Source: Rickettsiales bacterium
GTDB taxonomy: Bacteria > Pseudomonadota > Alphaproteobacteria > Rickettsiales > JALZUV01
NCBI GenBank assembly: GCA_029252805.1
Contig: JAQXAR010000032.1
Location: 1-52,254, forward strand
DNA: 52,254 bases
Direction: 5' to 3'
The first letter of the stretch is position 1. Each line of letters starts with the position of its first letter. The notes beneath the pieces are model-generated. The model was not told the DNA's origin. It saw only the letters and a program-made list of their open reading frames with translations, and did no database searches. Shown here piece after piece: positions 21,303 to 28,389 of the stretch. A program made the translations under genes and the position numbers.

Positions 21303-22973
21303 ATGACCTATTTTACCGATGAAATATTTGACCGCATTAGCAACGAGCTCAAAATTATTTGGGCGGCGCATAAAAATGTCGGCCTAAGCGGCAAGATGTG
21401 TCTTTATACTCAGCCAGAGCAAGACCCTTGGCGTGCGCTTAACCCAACTCTAAAATTCTGGTTTGGCGATTCTGACAAAGAAATTATGGATATGGTTCGC
21501 GAAATTCGCGCCAGCTATAATGATGGGCACTTGCCTAACTCTCCACTCCTGCTTAACCCGCTTGTCCACCAGATTAATGAGACAGGTAGTTACGAAGCGG
21601 TCGGTTCGGGTATGATGTGGACCACCGCCTTTACCCTTGGGATTGACCGTTTAGATGAAGATTCCGTCACACGCTTAAAAGATCTTGGCGCTTTTGTCGG
21701 CACCTATGTACGCGGCGAAAATAAGAAGGCAGGCATAAAGGTTATTGCCTTTGCCAATGCGAGGCTGCCCGTTATTCCTGGCACACACGTCATTGACGGG
21801 AATGAACCCCTCTACGAAATCGCCGATACCGAAAGCGAGGCTTACCATAAAGCTTATCCGCTATCTGATTTAGAATATCTCACAAAGAACGGTTCATTCC
21901 AACACACTAGCTTTATCTCTATGTTACCGGAAAATTTCAAAATTGAAGACATTGCCAATCACACGATTGCGGCCAAAAAGATCGAAGAAGCAGCCATCTG
22001 CTGGAACGCATATGATCGCCATCAGTTGCTTTACGATAAGTTCGGCATCGATCCTAAAAAGATTGACCATAATATGCGCTTCTTCCGCATGGTGGCACAT
22101 GACATCACCCTCTTTGAAGCGACAGGCTCTGACCGTAAAGATAAAGAAGACAACTTCGAATTCCTCGTCGAAGGCTGGATTCCTAAAGCGTCCGTTACGG
22201 TCGTGGGCGCGACAGGCGGAACCGGAAAAAGCTCGGTTTCCCATAGACTTGCAATTCAATGCTCGATTGATTGGGAAGAGCACGAACAACCCATGTGGCT
22301 CGGCCAACCCATTAATAAAGAATATGCTAAAGGCCTTGTGATCTATTTCTCAGGTGAGGATAGTGCGGCGATCGTCAATGCACGCGCCAACTTGATGGAC
22401 CCTGAAGGTCGTTCATCTCGCTTAATGCTGCAACGCAGTGGCTTTGGCACAAATGAAGATGGTAGTAAATCTAATCTCGGAGACTTCCTTAACCGATTGC
22501 ATAAATTACCGGATGTTTCATTGGTGGTCATTGACCCGGCACGTAAGTATCTCACCGGCGATGAGGATAATTCTGAGGTCGTGAGTGAGTTTTTTGAAGC
22601 CATCGAAGAATTTGCTATCACCAAAAATTGCGGCATGGTGGTGGTTCATCACCTCGTGAAGAACGCCCACCCGAAGGACACACGCGATATTTACGATCTA
22701 TTACGTGGTTCTCAAGTGTTTATTGATCGTCCGCGTGCCGTACTCGGCATGATGCGCGAAGGGCCTTATACGGTCATTGGGTTATCGAAGAATAACATCC
22801 CCCCTAACCTTGGTTCCATACAAGGCGAACGCCTATTTGTGCGCGACCCAGACCGCCTTGATCTAGTTCAACTGCCTGCTCCTGAAGGCGTCCGCACTTG
22901 GGAGGCTTCTGCCGATGAATTACGCGAAATTCGTGAAACGATCGAAAATGACACAAAAAGTAAGGCCGAATAG
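21303..22973 (+). CDS. RepA-like AAA_25 ATPase with unassigned N-terminal region
   Basis: A 556-aa protein. Residues about 285-500 are a RecA/RepA-type (AAA_25) ATPase: Walker A GATGGTGKSS (302-311), YFSGEDSAAIV (GED at 351-353), Walker B LVVIDPARKYL (407-417), and VVVHHLVKNA (HH at 449-450), all as in plasmid RepA-like helicases. The first 280 residues are unassigned; NARLPVIPGTHVIDGNEP weakly recalls the late motif of primase-polymerases, but the catalytic Asp motifs are not seen. It may be a remnant of a replication module or a stand-alone DNA motor. It lies 116 bp upstream of the unusual four-gene operon. Confidence 0.75.
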   Translation: MTYFTDEIFDRISNELKIIWAAHKNVGLSGKMCLYTQPEQDPWRALNPTLKFWFGDSDKEIMDMVREIRASYNDGHLPNSPLLLNPLVHQINETGSYEAVGSGMMWTTAFTLGIDRLDEDSVTRLKDLGAFVGTYVRGENKKAGIKVIAFANARLPVIPGTHVIDGNEPLYEIADTESEAYHKAYPLSDLEYLTKNGSFQHTSFISMLPENFKIEDIANHTIAAKKIEEAAICWNAYDRHQLLYDKFGIDPKKIDHNMRFFRMVAHDITLFEATGSDRKDKEDNFEFLVEGWIPKASVTVVGATGGTGKSSVSHRLAIQCSIDWEEHEQPMWLGQPINKEYAKGLVIYFSGEDSAAIVNARANLMDPEGRSSRLMLQRSGFGTNEDGSKSNLGDFLNRLHKLPDVSLVVIDPARKYLTGDEDNSEVVSEFFEAIEEFAITKNCGMVVVHHLVKNAHPKDTRDIYDLLRGSQVFIDRPRAVLGMMREGPYTVIGLSKNNIPPNLGSIQGERLFVRDPDRLDLVQLPAPEGVRTWEASADELREIRETIENDTKSKAE

Positions 22974-23014
22974 GCACTTAAGTAATTGTGACAGTTTGAA
23001 GTCGTCACACAACC

Positions 23015-23047
23015 TTAACACTCCCCCCCCCTTGTTTCTGCTATATT
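23015..23047 (+). promoter_or_regulatory. candidate promoter with C9 tract
   Basis: TTAACA (23015-23020) and TATATT (23042-23047) flank a spacer of 21 bp that contains nine C in a row (23023-23031). A spacer near 17 bp is usual, so loss of three or four C would make a better promoter. AGGA eight bases before the ATG at 23090 gives a normal ribosome site. Confidence 0.45.
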
Positions 23048-23089
23048 AACCCTAATGAGACAGATACATTTTGTTTCAGGACTTAAATT

Positions 23090-24406
23090 ATGGTAGAAAA
23101 AATAGATAACATAACCCCACAAGCCAAGGCGAAAAATGCAGCGCAAGGCGACGATTGGGCTGCTTCGACTAAAAATAAGTCTAAAGAAGTGCGTACAAGT
23201 GGCTGGTGGTTGTTTGATACACTCGTGCATGGCGGCATCAACGGTGTCGGCAACATCGCCGCTTCCTTAGCAATGGTAAGAGACCGTTCCAACTATAAGG
23301 TCAACCAGCTCATTGATGCGAAAAAAAACGGCACAAAGGTGACTGATAGCGGTGTTTTCACCAGTAAATTGAACGTTTCAGAGAAAGATCGCAGAAAATC
23401 TTATCTATCTGACATCAATATTCCATTCTTAGGGGTTAAAAAATTCAACTTCTATGAATTCAGCAATAAAATTGATACAAAATCAGTCGCCTTCTTTGAC
23501 TATCTCGGTGAAAAAGGACTGAACAAAGTACCGGTGGTTAAAAACCTCTTAGAACCACTTGGAAAATATACTGGCGGCATCTTATTCCTTGCTTGGGGTG
23601 GACATGTCACCAACAGTATCATGTGGTTGCTCGAAAGCCCTAACATTAAGCCTAAACTCGTGCGTGCATTTGATAAATTGATCGATGGCTTCAATAGCCT
23701 CAGAGGTCAAAAACCAACCGAAGAAGAACTCAGCAAACGCGCAGAGATTTACAAAAAACTTGACTCTGATCTGGCAGGTAAATCAGTTAAAGGGGTTTGG
23801 GGCGCTCGCTTTGCAGGCATCTTAAGCGTCATCGGCGTCGCCTCAGTGGCAGAAGCAATTGATGTTGCAGCTACTAACGCAGACCCATCAAAACAAAAAA
23901 CAGGTATCCTACGTGGTAGTCAGGCTTTCTTTAAAGGCGCTCAGTATCACCAAGGAGGTGCTCGTGCCCTAGGCTATAAAGCGGATTATGGAATGCTCAG
24001 TCAGGACAAAACTTCCGTGGCAGCCGCACGCGCTAATTATTTTGCCGACCAAACCGTCACAGAAATTCTAGGTACAGGCCTCACAACAAGCGTACAGTAC
24101 GCTTACCTCATGATGCGTGAATTCCTAGGCATTGGGCCTAAAACTAACGTTGGCGATGAAGATAAAAATTCTACGAAATCAAAGGCAGCCCCTAAAGCTC
24201 CTGTCACAGCACAGAGCAAGGCAAATACCAGCCCAGCACCGAAAGCGTCTGTCGAAAAAGAAACACAACCTAAAACAACTAAAGCATCTACAGATACAGA
24301 ATTGAAAAAGACTGCCGGTTACCGTGAAAAGAACCAACCTACCGGCGAAAACTATCAAGATAAAACCAGCACATCGCAGGACGTCGTCGCGGAGCAAATG
24401 ATCTAA
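23090..24406 (+). CDS. unknown membrane-associated protein, operon member 1
   Basis: Not recognised. 438 aa: a polar N-terminus with WAAST (23-27), hydrophobic segments at about 41-63, 161-181, 237-261 and 321-347, then a Lys/Ala/Thr/Pro-rich tail (355-438, with AAPKAP) that should be disordered. The second segment carries GGH (170-172) followed by a charged stretch ending in AFDKLIDGF; the third begins GARFAGIL. The same order and several identical residues occur in the protein encoded at 25493, and more weakly at 24406, so I infer a paralogous family. No signal peptide or catalytic motif is seen. Its TAA overlaps the next ATG by one base. Confidence 0.8.
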   Translation: MVEKIDNITPQAKAKNAAQGDDWAASTKNKSKEVRTSGWWLFDTLVHGGINGVGNIAASLAMVRDRSNYKVNQLIDAKKNGTKVTDSGVFTSKLNVSEKDRRKSYLSDINIPFLGVKKFNFYEFSNKIDTKSVAFFDYLGEKGLNKVPVVKNLLEPLGKYTGGILFLAWGGHVTNSIMWLLESPNIKPKLVRAFDKLIDGFNSLRGQKPTEEELSKRAEIYKKLDSDLAGKSVKGVWGARFAGILSVIGVASVAEAIDVAATNADPSKQKTGILRGSQAFFKGAQYHQGGARALGYKADYGMLSQDKTSVAAARANYFADQTVTEILGTGLTTSVQYAYLMMREFLGIGPKTNVGDEDKNSTKSKAAPKAPVTAQSKANTSPAPKASVEKETQPKTTKASTDTELKKTAGYREKNQPTGENYQDKTSTSQDVVAEQMI

Positions 24407-25488
24407 TGGTAGATGCCCCACAAAATATAACGCCTAAAACCGATGCGGATAAAAAGCCTGAATGGGCTGTTAAAGCCGAAGATGCGGGCTATACACCTAA
24501 GAAAACTATTGGTGAAAAAATCTTTGACCGCATCGCCTATATCGGCATTGGCGATGTATTAGTATTCATTGCCAGCGTTGGTCTAGCTTATGGCTTAAAA
24601 TATAGTAGCAGAAAAATTCCTGGCATGAAGGATACCACATGGGCTCAAGGTTGGGAAAATGTAGGTGCTAAAATTACCAACTTCTTTAAATTAGACACCC
24701 AAATTAACAAAAAAACGGGGAAACAGAACCGTGTTAATGGAAACGTCGAAAATGCCTTGATGACTACCGCGCTCATGATGCCCGGCAACCTTGCTCTTGC
24801 ACCGATCCGCTGGATGGAAAGACGTAAGACAGGACTCGTTAAGAACTATAATGAGAAGTATGGAGCACCTGCAAAAGGGGAAACCCCTTCCGATACAGAA
24901 ATAGGTGAATGGAATACAAAAAGCGAAGCAATGCAAAGCTGGAGTAGCTTGCTAAAAGGACGTGTTGTGGCATGGTTGGTCGTGTTTAGCAGCTTAACCA
25001 CGCTAGATAAGCTTCGTCCTAAAGCATTGCCTAACTTCATGAACAAGACAGGTATCCTATTTGAAGATGCTGCCGCAAAGTTAAATCTTGCAGACAAACC
25101 CAAACCTGGCGTCGATCGTGGGCCCGACGCCACACGCAGTAAGAACAATAAGCGTGCCTATTTTTTTGGTGAAATCGCTTCAATTGATTTCTTTGCTGAT
25201 ATTGCTGCCATCGCTATTCTTTATGTCGGAAGTAAATTTTTTGCTAAAAGAAGTGCAGAAAATACCTCCCCCTCCCCGAAAGCTACACCGTCGCACATTT
25301 CAGATGACGTGCAAGCGCCCGCCGCTTCCGTTGAGGTGAAAACTGCAGTCAAAGCCGAGGCGAACATTATGCCGCGCAAACCGCATAGTGATAACGTTCA
25401 ACCACGTGAAGCAAGTTATGCCGAAGAAAATACCAAGCGCATAGTCGCCGCTGAAGAATCGTTAACCCCTACACAAGTAGGCGGATAA
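24406..25488 (+). CDS. unknown membrane-associated protein, operon member 2
   Basis: Not recognised. 360 aa, with the family layout: EWAVKA near the N-terminus (19-24), GEKIFD (36-41) leading into a hydrophobic segment (42-64), a second at about 114-137 followed by IRWMERRKTGLVK, a third starting LLKGRVVAWLVVF (182-195), and a fourth at about 252-279. A polar Ala/Pro/Lys-rich tail covers 280-360. It lacks the GGH of its two paralogues and is the most diverged of the three. It starts at an ATG overlapping the previous stop and ends 4 bp before the next gene. Confidence 0.78.
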   Translation: MVDAPQNITPKTDADKKPEWAVKAEDAGYTPKKTIGEKIFDRIAYIGIGDVLVFIASVGLAYGLKYSSRKIPGMKDTTWAQGWENVGAKITNFFKLDTQINKKTGKQNRVNGNVENALMTTALMMPGNLALAPIRWMERRKTGLVKNYNEKYGAPAKGETPSDTEIGEWNTKSEAMQSWSSLLKGRVVAWLVVFSSLTTLDKLRPKALPNFMNKTGILFEDAAAKLNLADKPKPGVDRGPDATRSKNNKRAYFFGEIASIDFFADIAAIAILYVGSKFFAKRSAENTSPSPKATPSHISDDVQAPAASVEVKTAVKAEANIMPRKPHSDNVQPREASYAEENTKRIVAAEESLTPTQVGG

Positions 25489-25492
25489 AGCG

Positions 25493-26539
25493 ATGGTCGA
25501 AGAAGGAACCAAAACCACACAAGAATGGGCGGCGAGCACTCTTACGGCTAAGGAGCCGACGCGCGGTGAGCGCCTGTTTGATTTCATTACGTACAAAGCC
25601 CTCAACTTTGCCGGAAATTTAGGCCTATCTCTTGCCATTGTTGATTTATTTCTAGGCAGCACGCCGGATAAGAAAAATCCTAATAAGCCTACCAGTTACT
25701 TTGCTGAAAAAATCAACAAACCGTGGGCGACAAAAAGTTCTGACTGGTTACGCAAAACACAAGAATCATTAGATAACACCTTTGGCAAAACCGCAGGCGC
25801 CGTTGCCACCCTTAATCTCGGCGGACATATCGCCGCAATTTTTGTCAAAAAACTTGAAAATAATCGCGCAAGCTTAAGCAAACGCTTCGATGGCTGGATC
25901 GATGCCTTCACCGGCACAAAAGCCGATCGAGCTGAAATTGATCGCCGTGAAGCACGTTACGAAATAGTCAAAAATTCTCCCATCAAAACATGGACTGAAG
26001 TCATTGCAGGGCGTGTCTCTGGTATGGTGGCCAGTATGGCCCTCAACCAAATCCCAGAAACGATTGATGAAAGAATGGGGAACGCCCCGACCCAAGGCCG
26101 ATATGGCTTCCGCCGTATAACCGGCGCTGCAGGTAATTACGTCGCCAACGGCATCACTGACAGAAAAAATGCAGCACTTAAAGCCCAAGGCAAACCAGCC
26201 ATGTCTGATATGGCGGCAAAGCGAACTAACTATTGGACAGAGTTAATCATGTTTGACACATGGTGTACGGCGATTACGTCTACCGTAATGGAAAAGGTGA
26301 TTAAATGGAGTGATAAAAAAGATCACACCCTTGCAGAAACACCTATCGCCGCCAATACTACTGGCAATGCAGCACCTAAGGGTGAGGTCACGGCAACTAC
26401 AGAAAGCATTGCCCCTAAAGATGAAGCCGCTGCTAGCGGTGCTACTCGTTTTTACGATGAGCAAGAAACAGCGGAAGATAAGAAGCGCTGGGGCGACCGC
26501 AATTATGACCCTGTTGATGAAGTCGGGGTACCTCTGTGA
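25493..26539 (+). CDS. unknown membrane-associated protein, operon member 3
   Basis: Not recognised. 348 aa. EWAAST (11-16) and GERLFDFITY (25-34) open the protein; hydrophobic segments lie at about 31-54, 100-121, 174-192 and 247-268. The second holds LNLGGHIAAIFVKKLE and is followed by KRFDGWIDAF; the third starts AGRVSGMVA. These match the first operon protein segment by segment. The tail from 275 on is Ala/Thr/Glu-rich with NAAPKGEVTA, then a charged end (EDKKRWGDRNYDP). The TGA overlaps the GTG start of the fourth gene by 4 bp. Confidence 0.8.
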   Translation: MVEEGTKTTQEWAASTLTAKEPTRGERLFDFITYKALNFAGNLGLSLAIVDLFLGSTPDKKNPNKPTSYFAEKINKPWATKSSDWLRKTQESLDNTFGKTAGAVATLNLGGHIAAIFVKKLENNRASLSKRFDGWIDAFTGTKADRAEIDRREARYEIVKNSPIKTWTEVIAGRVSGMVASMALNQIPETIDERMGNAPTQGRYGFRRITGAAGNYVANGITDRKNAALKAQGKPAMSDMAAKRTNYWTELIMFDTWCTAITSTVMEKVIKWSDKKDHTLAETPIAANTTGNAAPKGEVTATTESIAPKDEAAASGATRFYDEQETAEDKKRWGDRNYDPVDEVGVPL

Positions 26540-28389
26540 AATACCAATGGAATCAACCCGATTCACTTGTTGAAGAAGTTCGCTTCACGCCCGCTAAAAA
26601 AGGGCGCGCGGCTGAGGCTGTTATTGTTTTACGCCCACAAGAAGACATTAAGACAACCACACTTGATACCGCATTGGTCGATCAAGGCTTTTCCCTCAGC
26701 TATGACCTGATTGATGGGCAATCTGTCTTACGCATAGGCAATTTCAAACATGAAAAAGAAGTCCTAGCCACCTTACAAAAAACCGAAGCGGTCAAAGGCG
26801 AAAGCCAAAAATCAGCGAGCGGTCAAGAAATCGAACCCACGATGTTGCAAAAAGTTCGTGCGAACAGCCTTGTACTCTCTGCCGTATTTTACCAACTCGG
26901 AAACGTTGCAACTGCATTAAGTGGTTGGTTCCGTCGCGATAATGATGAATTACGCAGCGGTTTGGCCTTCTCGGTTGGGGACACTGCCATGCTTATGTTT
27001 GGTAAACGTAGCGACAAAGAAAAACACGATGCCGTGATGCAAGGCTTTGGTGATAGTTTAAAACAAAATGGTATTGCTCCTTCTTTTGGCAGTGCATTCA
27101 CGACAGGATTACATAGCAGCAAAGGTGGATGGCAAGGCGTTCGTAACTTTATGCATAATAAAGTCATCGCCATTAAATCTGCCTCTGAAGTCACCGCAGG
27201 AATATCCCTCGCCATCGCAGGACAAAAGCAAAGCAACCCTTACAAAAAAGCAGCCGGTATCTTAGTCAGCTCTGGCTTTGCCTTAGGTGCGAGTATTCCA
27301 GAAAAAAGTTCTTCTGAAATTCGTGAAGATTTAGGTGTTACCACCCCAGCCGAGGCAAAAGAGGCTCTCGCAAATTTATCTCTATGGAAACGCCTCAGTT
27401 ATAAAGTGCAGCAAATGCCACTCCTTATTTCTGGCTTTTTCGCTGGCCTAAATAACGTTTCTTCGATTATAGGCGCATTTGATGAGCGCAAACATCGCTG
27501 GCAGAAGCACAGTATTGCGAACAAAATCGGCAATAAAACCGATGGCTTAAACGGAGAGCCTAAAAAGATGAACGAAACTATCACCAGTGATGCTGGGCAA
27601 GTCAACAAACTCAAAAATATAAATGAGACGGCTTACTCGAAAGTAAACCGTCTCTCCCAGCAGTTGGACACAGCGACTGCACCAAGCAAAGCCGTTGGGC
27701 TTTCTGAAGAGCTAAGAGAGGCTCAACACGAACTCACGAAACTCAAAGGCGAACAAGATTCCGTTCTGAAAGGACGCTATGATAATAAAAGCGCAGCGAG
27801 TAAATTCTGGATATTTAACCTTGCTCAAGGCTTACTCTTCCTCGTTGCAAACACACTTTACGGCATCAGTTCCAAATCTGGCCGCAGCAACAGTGAAGAA
27901 CTTCTCGGTAAACAGTTTATCTCTGCCGTTGCCAGCGAAGTGCTGATCACACCACCGCAAGACCGTGCGGAGATCATCAACATTGCATCACATTATGCCG
28001 GAAGCCTAGACGAGCTTGATTTCACAAGTGCCGAAATACGCACGATGCTAGAAGCAAAGCTTACGGAGCTTGAATCCCATGCACTCTTCGCGCTAAAGGA
28101 AGGCGAAACTGAAGTAACGAGCAAAGACAATAAGCCGCTAGAGGTTATCATTAAAGTCCAACCTGACACTCAAAAAGACGCAGAGGTCCTAGTTTCAGCA
28201 GACCATCAAACGGATCAAAACGCGGCGCCTAAAGCCAGTGCTGCCCCGACCGAAACAGCGCGCCCCAAAGAAGCCAAAGTTGCAAAAAGGTTTCTCGATA
28301 ATCTACCCGCCGGTAAAGACGGTAAGATTAAACCAGAGGATTTCTTAGCAAATGATGAAGTCACTCCTAAAGGCGCCACTATCCACTAA
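26536..28389 (+). CDS. unknown large membrane-associated protein, operon member 4
   Basis: Not recognised. 617 aa from a GTG start. An N-terminal soluble domain (1-85) is followed by about six hydrophobic segments (near 111-131, 142-155, 217-228, 238-253, 293-315, 424-446), with a predicted coiled coil at about 353-411 (QVNKLKNINETAYSKVNRL onward) before the last one. A soluble region with ITPPQDRAEIINIASHYAG and an acidic helix follows, then a tail with NAAPKASAAP like the tails of members 1 and 3. It does not share the four-segment layout of the other three, so it may be the structural partner. The gene ends 3 bp from the convergent redoxin gene. Confidence 0.8.
   Translation: MKYQWNQPDSLVEEVRFTPAKKGRAAEAVIVLRPQEDIKTTTLDTALVDQGFSLSYDLIDGQSVLRIGNFKHEKEVLATLQKTEAVKGESQKSASGQEIEPTMLQKVRANSLVLSAVFYQLGNVATALSGWFRRDNDELRSGLAFSVGDTAMLMFGKRSDKEKHDAVMQGFGDSLKQNGIAPSFGSAFTTGLHSSKGGWQGVRNFMHNKVIAIKSASEVTAGISLAIAGQKQSNPYKKAAGILVSSGFALGASIPEKSSSEIREDLGVTTPAEAKEALANLSLWKRLSYKVQQMPLLISGFFAGLNNVSSIIGAFDERKHRWQKHSIANKIGNKTDGLNGEPKKMNETITSDAGQVNKLKNINETAYSKVNRLSQQLDTATAPSKAVGLSEELREAQHELTKLKGEQDSVLKGRYDNKSAASKFWIFNLAQGLLFLVANTLYGISSKSGRSNSEELLGKQFISAVASEVLITPPQDRAEIINIASHYAGSLDELDFTSAEIRTMLEAKLTELESHALFALKEGETEVTSKDNKPLEVIIKVQPDTQKDAEVLVSADHQTDQNAAPKASAAPTETARPKEAKVAKRFLDNLPAGKDGKIKPEDFLANDEVTPKGATIH

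What the first reader, a model, noticed from the sequence alone, without database searches (positions are those of the whole stretch)
23090..28389. Four-gene operon of unrecognised membrane-associated proteins, three of them diverged paralogues
Genes at 23090, 24406, 25493 and 26536 overlap or lie within 4 nt of each other, so they are almost surely made together. Proteins 1-3 share a WA motif near the N-terminus, FD before the first hydrophobic segment, four hydrophobic segments in the same order, GGH in segment two (proteins 1 and 3), FD..ID after it, and G-x-R or GR at the start of segment three. Protein 4 adds six hydrophobic segments and a coiled coil. I recognise no family. This looks like a tandem-duplicated hetero-oligomeric membrane complex, a candidate for an undescribed system.
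Basis: partly seen in the sequence, partly recalled or inferred. Interest (0 to 1): 0.78.

Follow-up and report, generated by a model that had tools for sequence, protein, structure and literature searches.

The report
Two unknown protein families sharing tails
A four-gene cluster in an environmental relative of rickettsias encodes two unrelated, previously undescribed families of weakly hydrophobic helical proteins that occur together across one set of these bacteria and carry a similar short motif in their tails, which suggests, but does not prove, that they dock on the same unknown partner.

Summary
Four co-directional ORFs overlap or lie 4 nt apart. P1, P2 and P3 are true diverged paralogues: iterated profile searches from each converge on the same 22 proteins. 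P4 belongs to a second, unrelated family. Neither family matches Pfam, NCBIfam, PHROGs, PADLOC or PDB sequences. The genome is a Rickettsiales bacterium of about 2.2 Mb. Both families occur only in eight of 29 GTDB families of that order (46 and 50 of 263 genomes; 45 shared); family A was absent from other Alphaproteobacteria sampled. The four-gene operon is local: the trio recurs in the sister species and one other family, but P4 lies elsewhere there. In four other families family-A genes sit directly downstream of groEL, often followed by a dCache histidine kinase. The hydrophobic segments are marginal, so membrane insertion is not secure. A short motif in the disordered tails, learnt on family A alone, is enriched in P4 tails (0 of 200 shuffles) but not in other disordered tails. 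Best reading: two families working in one pathway through a common docking partner, probably as a membrane-associated assembly. [quoted passage not shown] Function is not shown.

The parts
23090..24406 (+). P1, family A protein (438 aa)
   Evidence: ORF; family A by iterated HMM; 59% identical orthologue in G001
24406..25488 (+). P2, family A protein (360 aa), old paralogue type shared with other Rickettsiales families
25493..26539 (+). P3, family A protein (348 aa), sister of P1
26536..28389 (+). P4, member of a second, unrelated family (617 aa, GTG start)
26536..26814 (+). P4 N-terminal small alpha/beta domain (aa 1-93)
   Evidence: AlphaFold model, pLDDT mostly 65-84 there; no significant fold match
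27889..28074 (+). P4 C-terminal helical domain (aa 452-513)
   Evidence: AlphaFold pLDDT mostly 72-85
28090..28389 (+). P4 disordered C-terminal tail; residues 585-590 RFLDNL are a degenerate form of the tail motif
   Evidence: pLDDT under 50; tail listings
23222..23278 (+). P1 hydrophobic segment 1 (aa 45-63)
   Evidence: mean hydropathy 1.26
23576..23632 (+). P1 hydrophobic segment 2 with GGH (aa 163-181)
   Evidence: mean hydropathy 1.25
23810..23866 (+). P1 hydrophobic segment 3 (aa 241-259)
   Evidence: mean hydropathy 1.83
22974..23089 (.). 116-nt upstream gap with an inverted repeat and an AACCTTAACAC element present also upstream of P1 in G001
   Evidence: compared by eye

Best explanation
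P1-P3 (family A) and P4 belong to two unrelated families, found only in one set of Rickettsiales, that work in one pathway. Shown: paralogy of P1-P3, restriction of both families to the same eight GTDB families of the order, conserved tandem coupling of family-A genes, and a similar short tail motif in both families. Inferred: the proteins associate with the inner membrane through weakly hydrophobic helices, family-A paralogues of different types form a mixed assembly, and the disordered tails dock a common partner in the cytosol, so the assembly acts as a membrane-associated scaffold. The partner is unknown.
For: All three seeds converge on one family. Family A in 46 and P4 family in 50 of 263 order genomes, 45 shared, none in the other 21 families of the order; family A absent from the non-order genomes among 289 sampled of the class. 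Trio with 1-nt overlaps or gaps of a few nt in G000, G001 and G026. Old subunit types kept across families. Family-A gene directly downstream of groEL on the same strand in 18 genomes, counted by hand; a dCache histidine kinase follows by 28-87 bp in six of the loci read and by 189 bp in a seventh. Motif learnt on family-A tails is enriched in P4 tails of the same lineage group, 0 of 200 shuffles, twice, and not in 294 other disordered tails (z 0.9 and -1.0). A homologous TPR protein lies next to family A in f1 and next to P4 in f23.
Against: Segments are below usual transmembrane strength and charge does not fix a topology. The reverse motif tests, P4 to A, are not significant (z 1.3 and -0.1), and lineage matching is only suggestive (permutation p 0.078). 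The eight families may be one clade, so co-occurrence may be shared inheritance (GroEL tree unresolved). P4 is next to family A only in this genome. The window's own tails carry only degenerate motifs.
Confidence: 0.38

Rival explanations
1. [quoted passage not shown] The disordered C-terminal tail is the signal read by the coupling protein, and the weak hydrophobic helices insert into a target membrane after export, having avoided the cell's own membrane-targeting pathway.
For: Two VirB4 homologues, as expected for rvh, are in G000 and in most genomes with both families. Two unrelated families share a C-terminal tail motif. Hydrophobicity is marginal, as published for type III and type IVB exported membrane proteins (PMC6110835). 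RARP-2 and RalF of Rickettsia bind RvhD4 through C-terminal tails (PMC11077975). The N-termini look hydrophilic, with no obvious signal peptide (by eye). Copies are several per genome and diverge fast.
Against: Every sampled genome of the eight families has one family or the other, with old conserved types and places next to groEL and other housekeeping genes; exported effectors are usually patchy. No other clear set of proteins with the same tail was found. Nearly all Rickettsiales have VirB4, so its presence does not discriminate.
Confidence: 0.22
2. Family A is an accessory module of the dCache histidine kinase that follows it, for example a membrane partner that tunes the sensor, with groEL as an old neighbour.
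For: Homologous kinase near family-A genes in 11 genomes of 3 GTDB families, on the same strand and close in the loci read.
Against: In this genome the best kinase match is on another contig, C41, with no family-A match there; weaker matches occur in families without A, such as f4 and f27; P4 is not explained.
Confidence: 0.15
3. Two fast-evolving, unconnected families that happen to be inherited together in one clade; the tail similarity is convergent composition.
For: Single origin of the set is not excluded; label permutation for lineage matching gives p 0.078; reverse motif tests fail.
Against: Within-tail shuffles control for composition and still give 0 of 200 for A to P4 in both lineage groups; other disordered tails show no enrichment.
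Confidence: 0.2

Closest known systems
rvh T4SS effectors of Rickettsia (RalF, RARP-2, cREMs)
   Same: Same order; C-terminal tails as the presumed recognition element (PMC11077975)
   Different: Not compared by sequence here; those have enzyme or repeat domains and patchy occurrence; no export shown here
Membrane-inserting type III and type IVB effectors
   Same: Weak hydrophobic helices, no obvious signal peptide (PMC6110835)
   Different: No homology shown; the present families are fixed in their group of bacteria and often sit by housekeeping genes
Conserved neighbours of groEL: the dCache histidine kinases next to family A in related genomes
   Same: Shared gene neighbourhood in f13, f23 and f29 genomes
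   Different: A neighbour, not a relative: family A itself has no named relative in Pfam or NCBIfam

Membership tests
rvh type IV secretion substrate | Secretion machine present in the genome | tested here: met
   Two VirB4 matches in G000, but nearly all order genomes have them; other rvh parts not searched
rvh type IV secretion substrate | Tail binds the coupling protein RvhD4 | not testable with these tools
   Needs a binding assay
rvh type IV secretion substrate | Shared C-terminal signal among unrelated proteins | tested here: inconclusive
   A to P4 enrichment 0 of 200; reverse tests not significant; no third family found with confidence
rvh type IV secretion substrate | Helices below the strength needed for inner-membrane targeting | tested here: inconclusive
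   Weak by simple hydropathy; the published delta-G predictor was not run
Integral polytopic inner-membrane protein | Several strongly hydrophobic helices | tested here: inconclusive
   Hydropathy 0.9-2.1, below in-window controls
One paralogous family (P1-P3) | Significant profile similarity among all three | tested here: met
One paralogous family (P4 included) | Profile similarity of P4 to P1-P3 | tested here: not met
   hhalign probability 0.2%
Known Pfam, NCBIfam, PHROGs or PADLOC family | Match above curated cut-off or clearly significant | tested here: not met
Known fold in the PDB | Clear structural match of a reliable model | tested here: inconclusive
   P4 model pLDDT 60, best Foldseek E 0.057, best Z 7.6; P3 model unusable

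The most novel reading that the evidence does not exclude
Probability: 0.18. Interest if true: 0.85.

Novelty: categorically new. Interest (0 to 1): 0.58.

Why it matters
Two protein families without any recognised relative are fixed in a set of large-genome Rickettsiales and were not found in the sampled members of 21 other families of the order, including the Ehrlichia-like one. They are therefore candidates for a trait lost or never gained by the host-dependent lineages. Schon et al. (PMC9352585) could assign no verified Rickettsiales effectors to the ancestral rvh system; if these are substrates, that question becomes testable. If they are a resident assembly, they are a clade-specific cell structure to be found. 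The rating categorically new is at family level: the kind of system is unresolved and folds could not be compared reliably.

Tried and rejected
Scans of viral contigs, plasmids and phages found no relative with the queries used, so no sign of a mobile or phage origin, but these are not proofs. Broad alignments were too diverged for back-translated scans. Fold searches with the P4 model gave nothing significant; small-domain likenesses to eIF1 and ACT-like domains are at background level. PADLOC gave no defence match for P1-P4. Fib_alpha, SH3_and_anchor and similar weak hits to P4 cover its predicted helical stretch and were dismissed as coiled-coil noise. A joint P1-P4 family was rejected. Positive-inside analysis did not fix a topology. 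Two literature searches found no description of these families, which is weak evidence.

Full report
Observation. A 116-nt gap separates them from an AAA_25 ATPase gene upstream, and a DsbE-like gene on the other strand ends 4 nt after P4. The gap holds an inverted repeat and an AACCTTAACAC element that is also present upstream of P1 in the sister species (compared by eye).

Paralogy. P1, P2 and P3 belong to one family, here called A. Direct and profile comparisons are significant, and iterated HMM searches from each seed end on the same 22 proteins. A tree of 67 members puts P2 in an old type with members from f26, f23 and f29 (12 rows, 99/96), and P1 with P3 as a later duplication in this genus (97/83); many branches are long and some forks open. 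P4 is a second family, unrelated by profile comparison. Its model has a small alpha/beta N-terminal domain, weak hydrophobic helices, a helical C-terminal domain and a disordered tail.

Taxonomy. The order is inferred to be Rickettsiales: one family in it carries 13 to 22 Surface_Ag_2 matches in arrays, as in Ehrlichia, and G001 is titled Rickettsiales bacterium. Large genomes fit the basal Rickettsiales of Castelli et al. (PMC10847448), but which of their families this is was not determined, and lifestyle is unknown.

Distribution. Family A was found in 46 and the P4 family in 50 of 263 genomes of the order; 45 have both, 51 have either, and all 51 belong to eight GTDB families. Family A was found in no genome outside the order among 289 of the class. 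P4 was not searched in the class. A GroEL tree does not settle whether the eight families are one clade, so co-occurrence may reflect common descent.

Neighbourhoods. The trio recurs in G001 and G026 with 1-nt overlaps or gaps of a few nt. P4 is beside it only in the window. By comparing coordinates by hand I counted 18 genomes, in f5, f13, f23 and f29, where a family-A gene lies directly downstream of groEL on the same strand; contig ends hide some cases. A dCache histidine kinase near family A recurs in 11 genomes, and gaps of 28-87 bp were measured in six loci and 189 bp in a seventh. Homologues of P4 lie near an amino-acid permease in seven genomes of f17 and f23. A homologous TPR protein neighbours family A in f1 and P4 in f23. 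No single functional partner follows from this.

Hydrophobicity. Averaged over the alignment, family A shows four hydrophobic segments and P4 six. In the window proteins they are weak, 0.9-2.1, while most helices of DsbD-like and FtsX controls are 1.7-2.9. The delta-G values in that call come from a simplified weighting and are only comparative.

Tail motif. This part was exploratory. I first saw similar short stretches in the tails by eye. A first regex test gave 22 of 44 family-A tails outside f29 against 3.5 expected. EM found different motifs in f29 and non-f29 family-A tails. A first test in P4 tails was weak (p 0.096); with tails cut by core HMMs it was 7 against 1.7 expected (p 0.002). 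I then fetched more tails and learnt motifs on family A only. In this cross-family test (twelve pairings) the two lineage-matched A to P4 pairings reached z 3.9 with 0 of 200 shuffles, the mismatched ones z 1.3 and 1.4; the lineage-matched P4 to A pairings were not significant. The split at f29 was chosen after viewing the tails, and the motif model was refitted on the enlarged set. A label permutation for lineage matching gave p 0.078. Other disordered tails from the same loci show no enrichment. So sharing of a motif is moderately supported, and parallel switching between lineages is only suggestive.

Interpretation. A common docking partner for both tails is the simplest reading, with a membrane-associated assembly as the likeliest role given fixed presence, old subunit types and coupled genes. 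Export by the rvh system explains tails and weak helices, and VirB4 homologues are present, but fixed presence and housekeeping neighbours speak against it. Schon et al. and Lehman et al. leave the substrates of rvh in basal lineages open (PMC9352585, PMC11077975). Nothing here shows function.

Noticed in passing
window 23023-23031: A run of nine C lies 58 nt upstream of the P1 start codon; the sister species has a shorter C-rich stretch there. Could affect expression if variable.
   Followed up: partly
window 21303-22973: AAA_25 ATPase similar to phage primase/helicase proteins, just upstream of P1 on the same strand and kept there in G001.
   Followed up: partly
L073 6883-7467 and L069 12870-13457: 194-195 aa proteins with a Gly/Ala-rich hydrophobic stretch near the N-terminus, whose tails look like those of family A (SFASRV ... 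SPQVG in L073). Possible third family with the tail.
   Followed up: no
L055, L069, L073: A family-A gene (G042, G023) or a P4-family gene (G052) lies directly upstream of an mraZ-like gene at the start of a cell-wall cluster.
   Followed up: no
L046 and L053: P4-family genes lie near alpha-glucosidase and transporter genes in two different GTDB families.
   Followed up: no
L057 1137-2006: A 289 aa protein just upstream of a P4-family gene in G035 carries RFADKL near its end, like the family-A tail motif.
   Followed up: no
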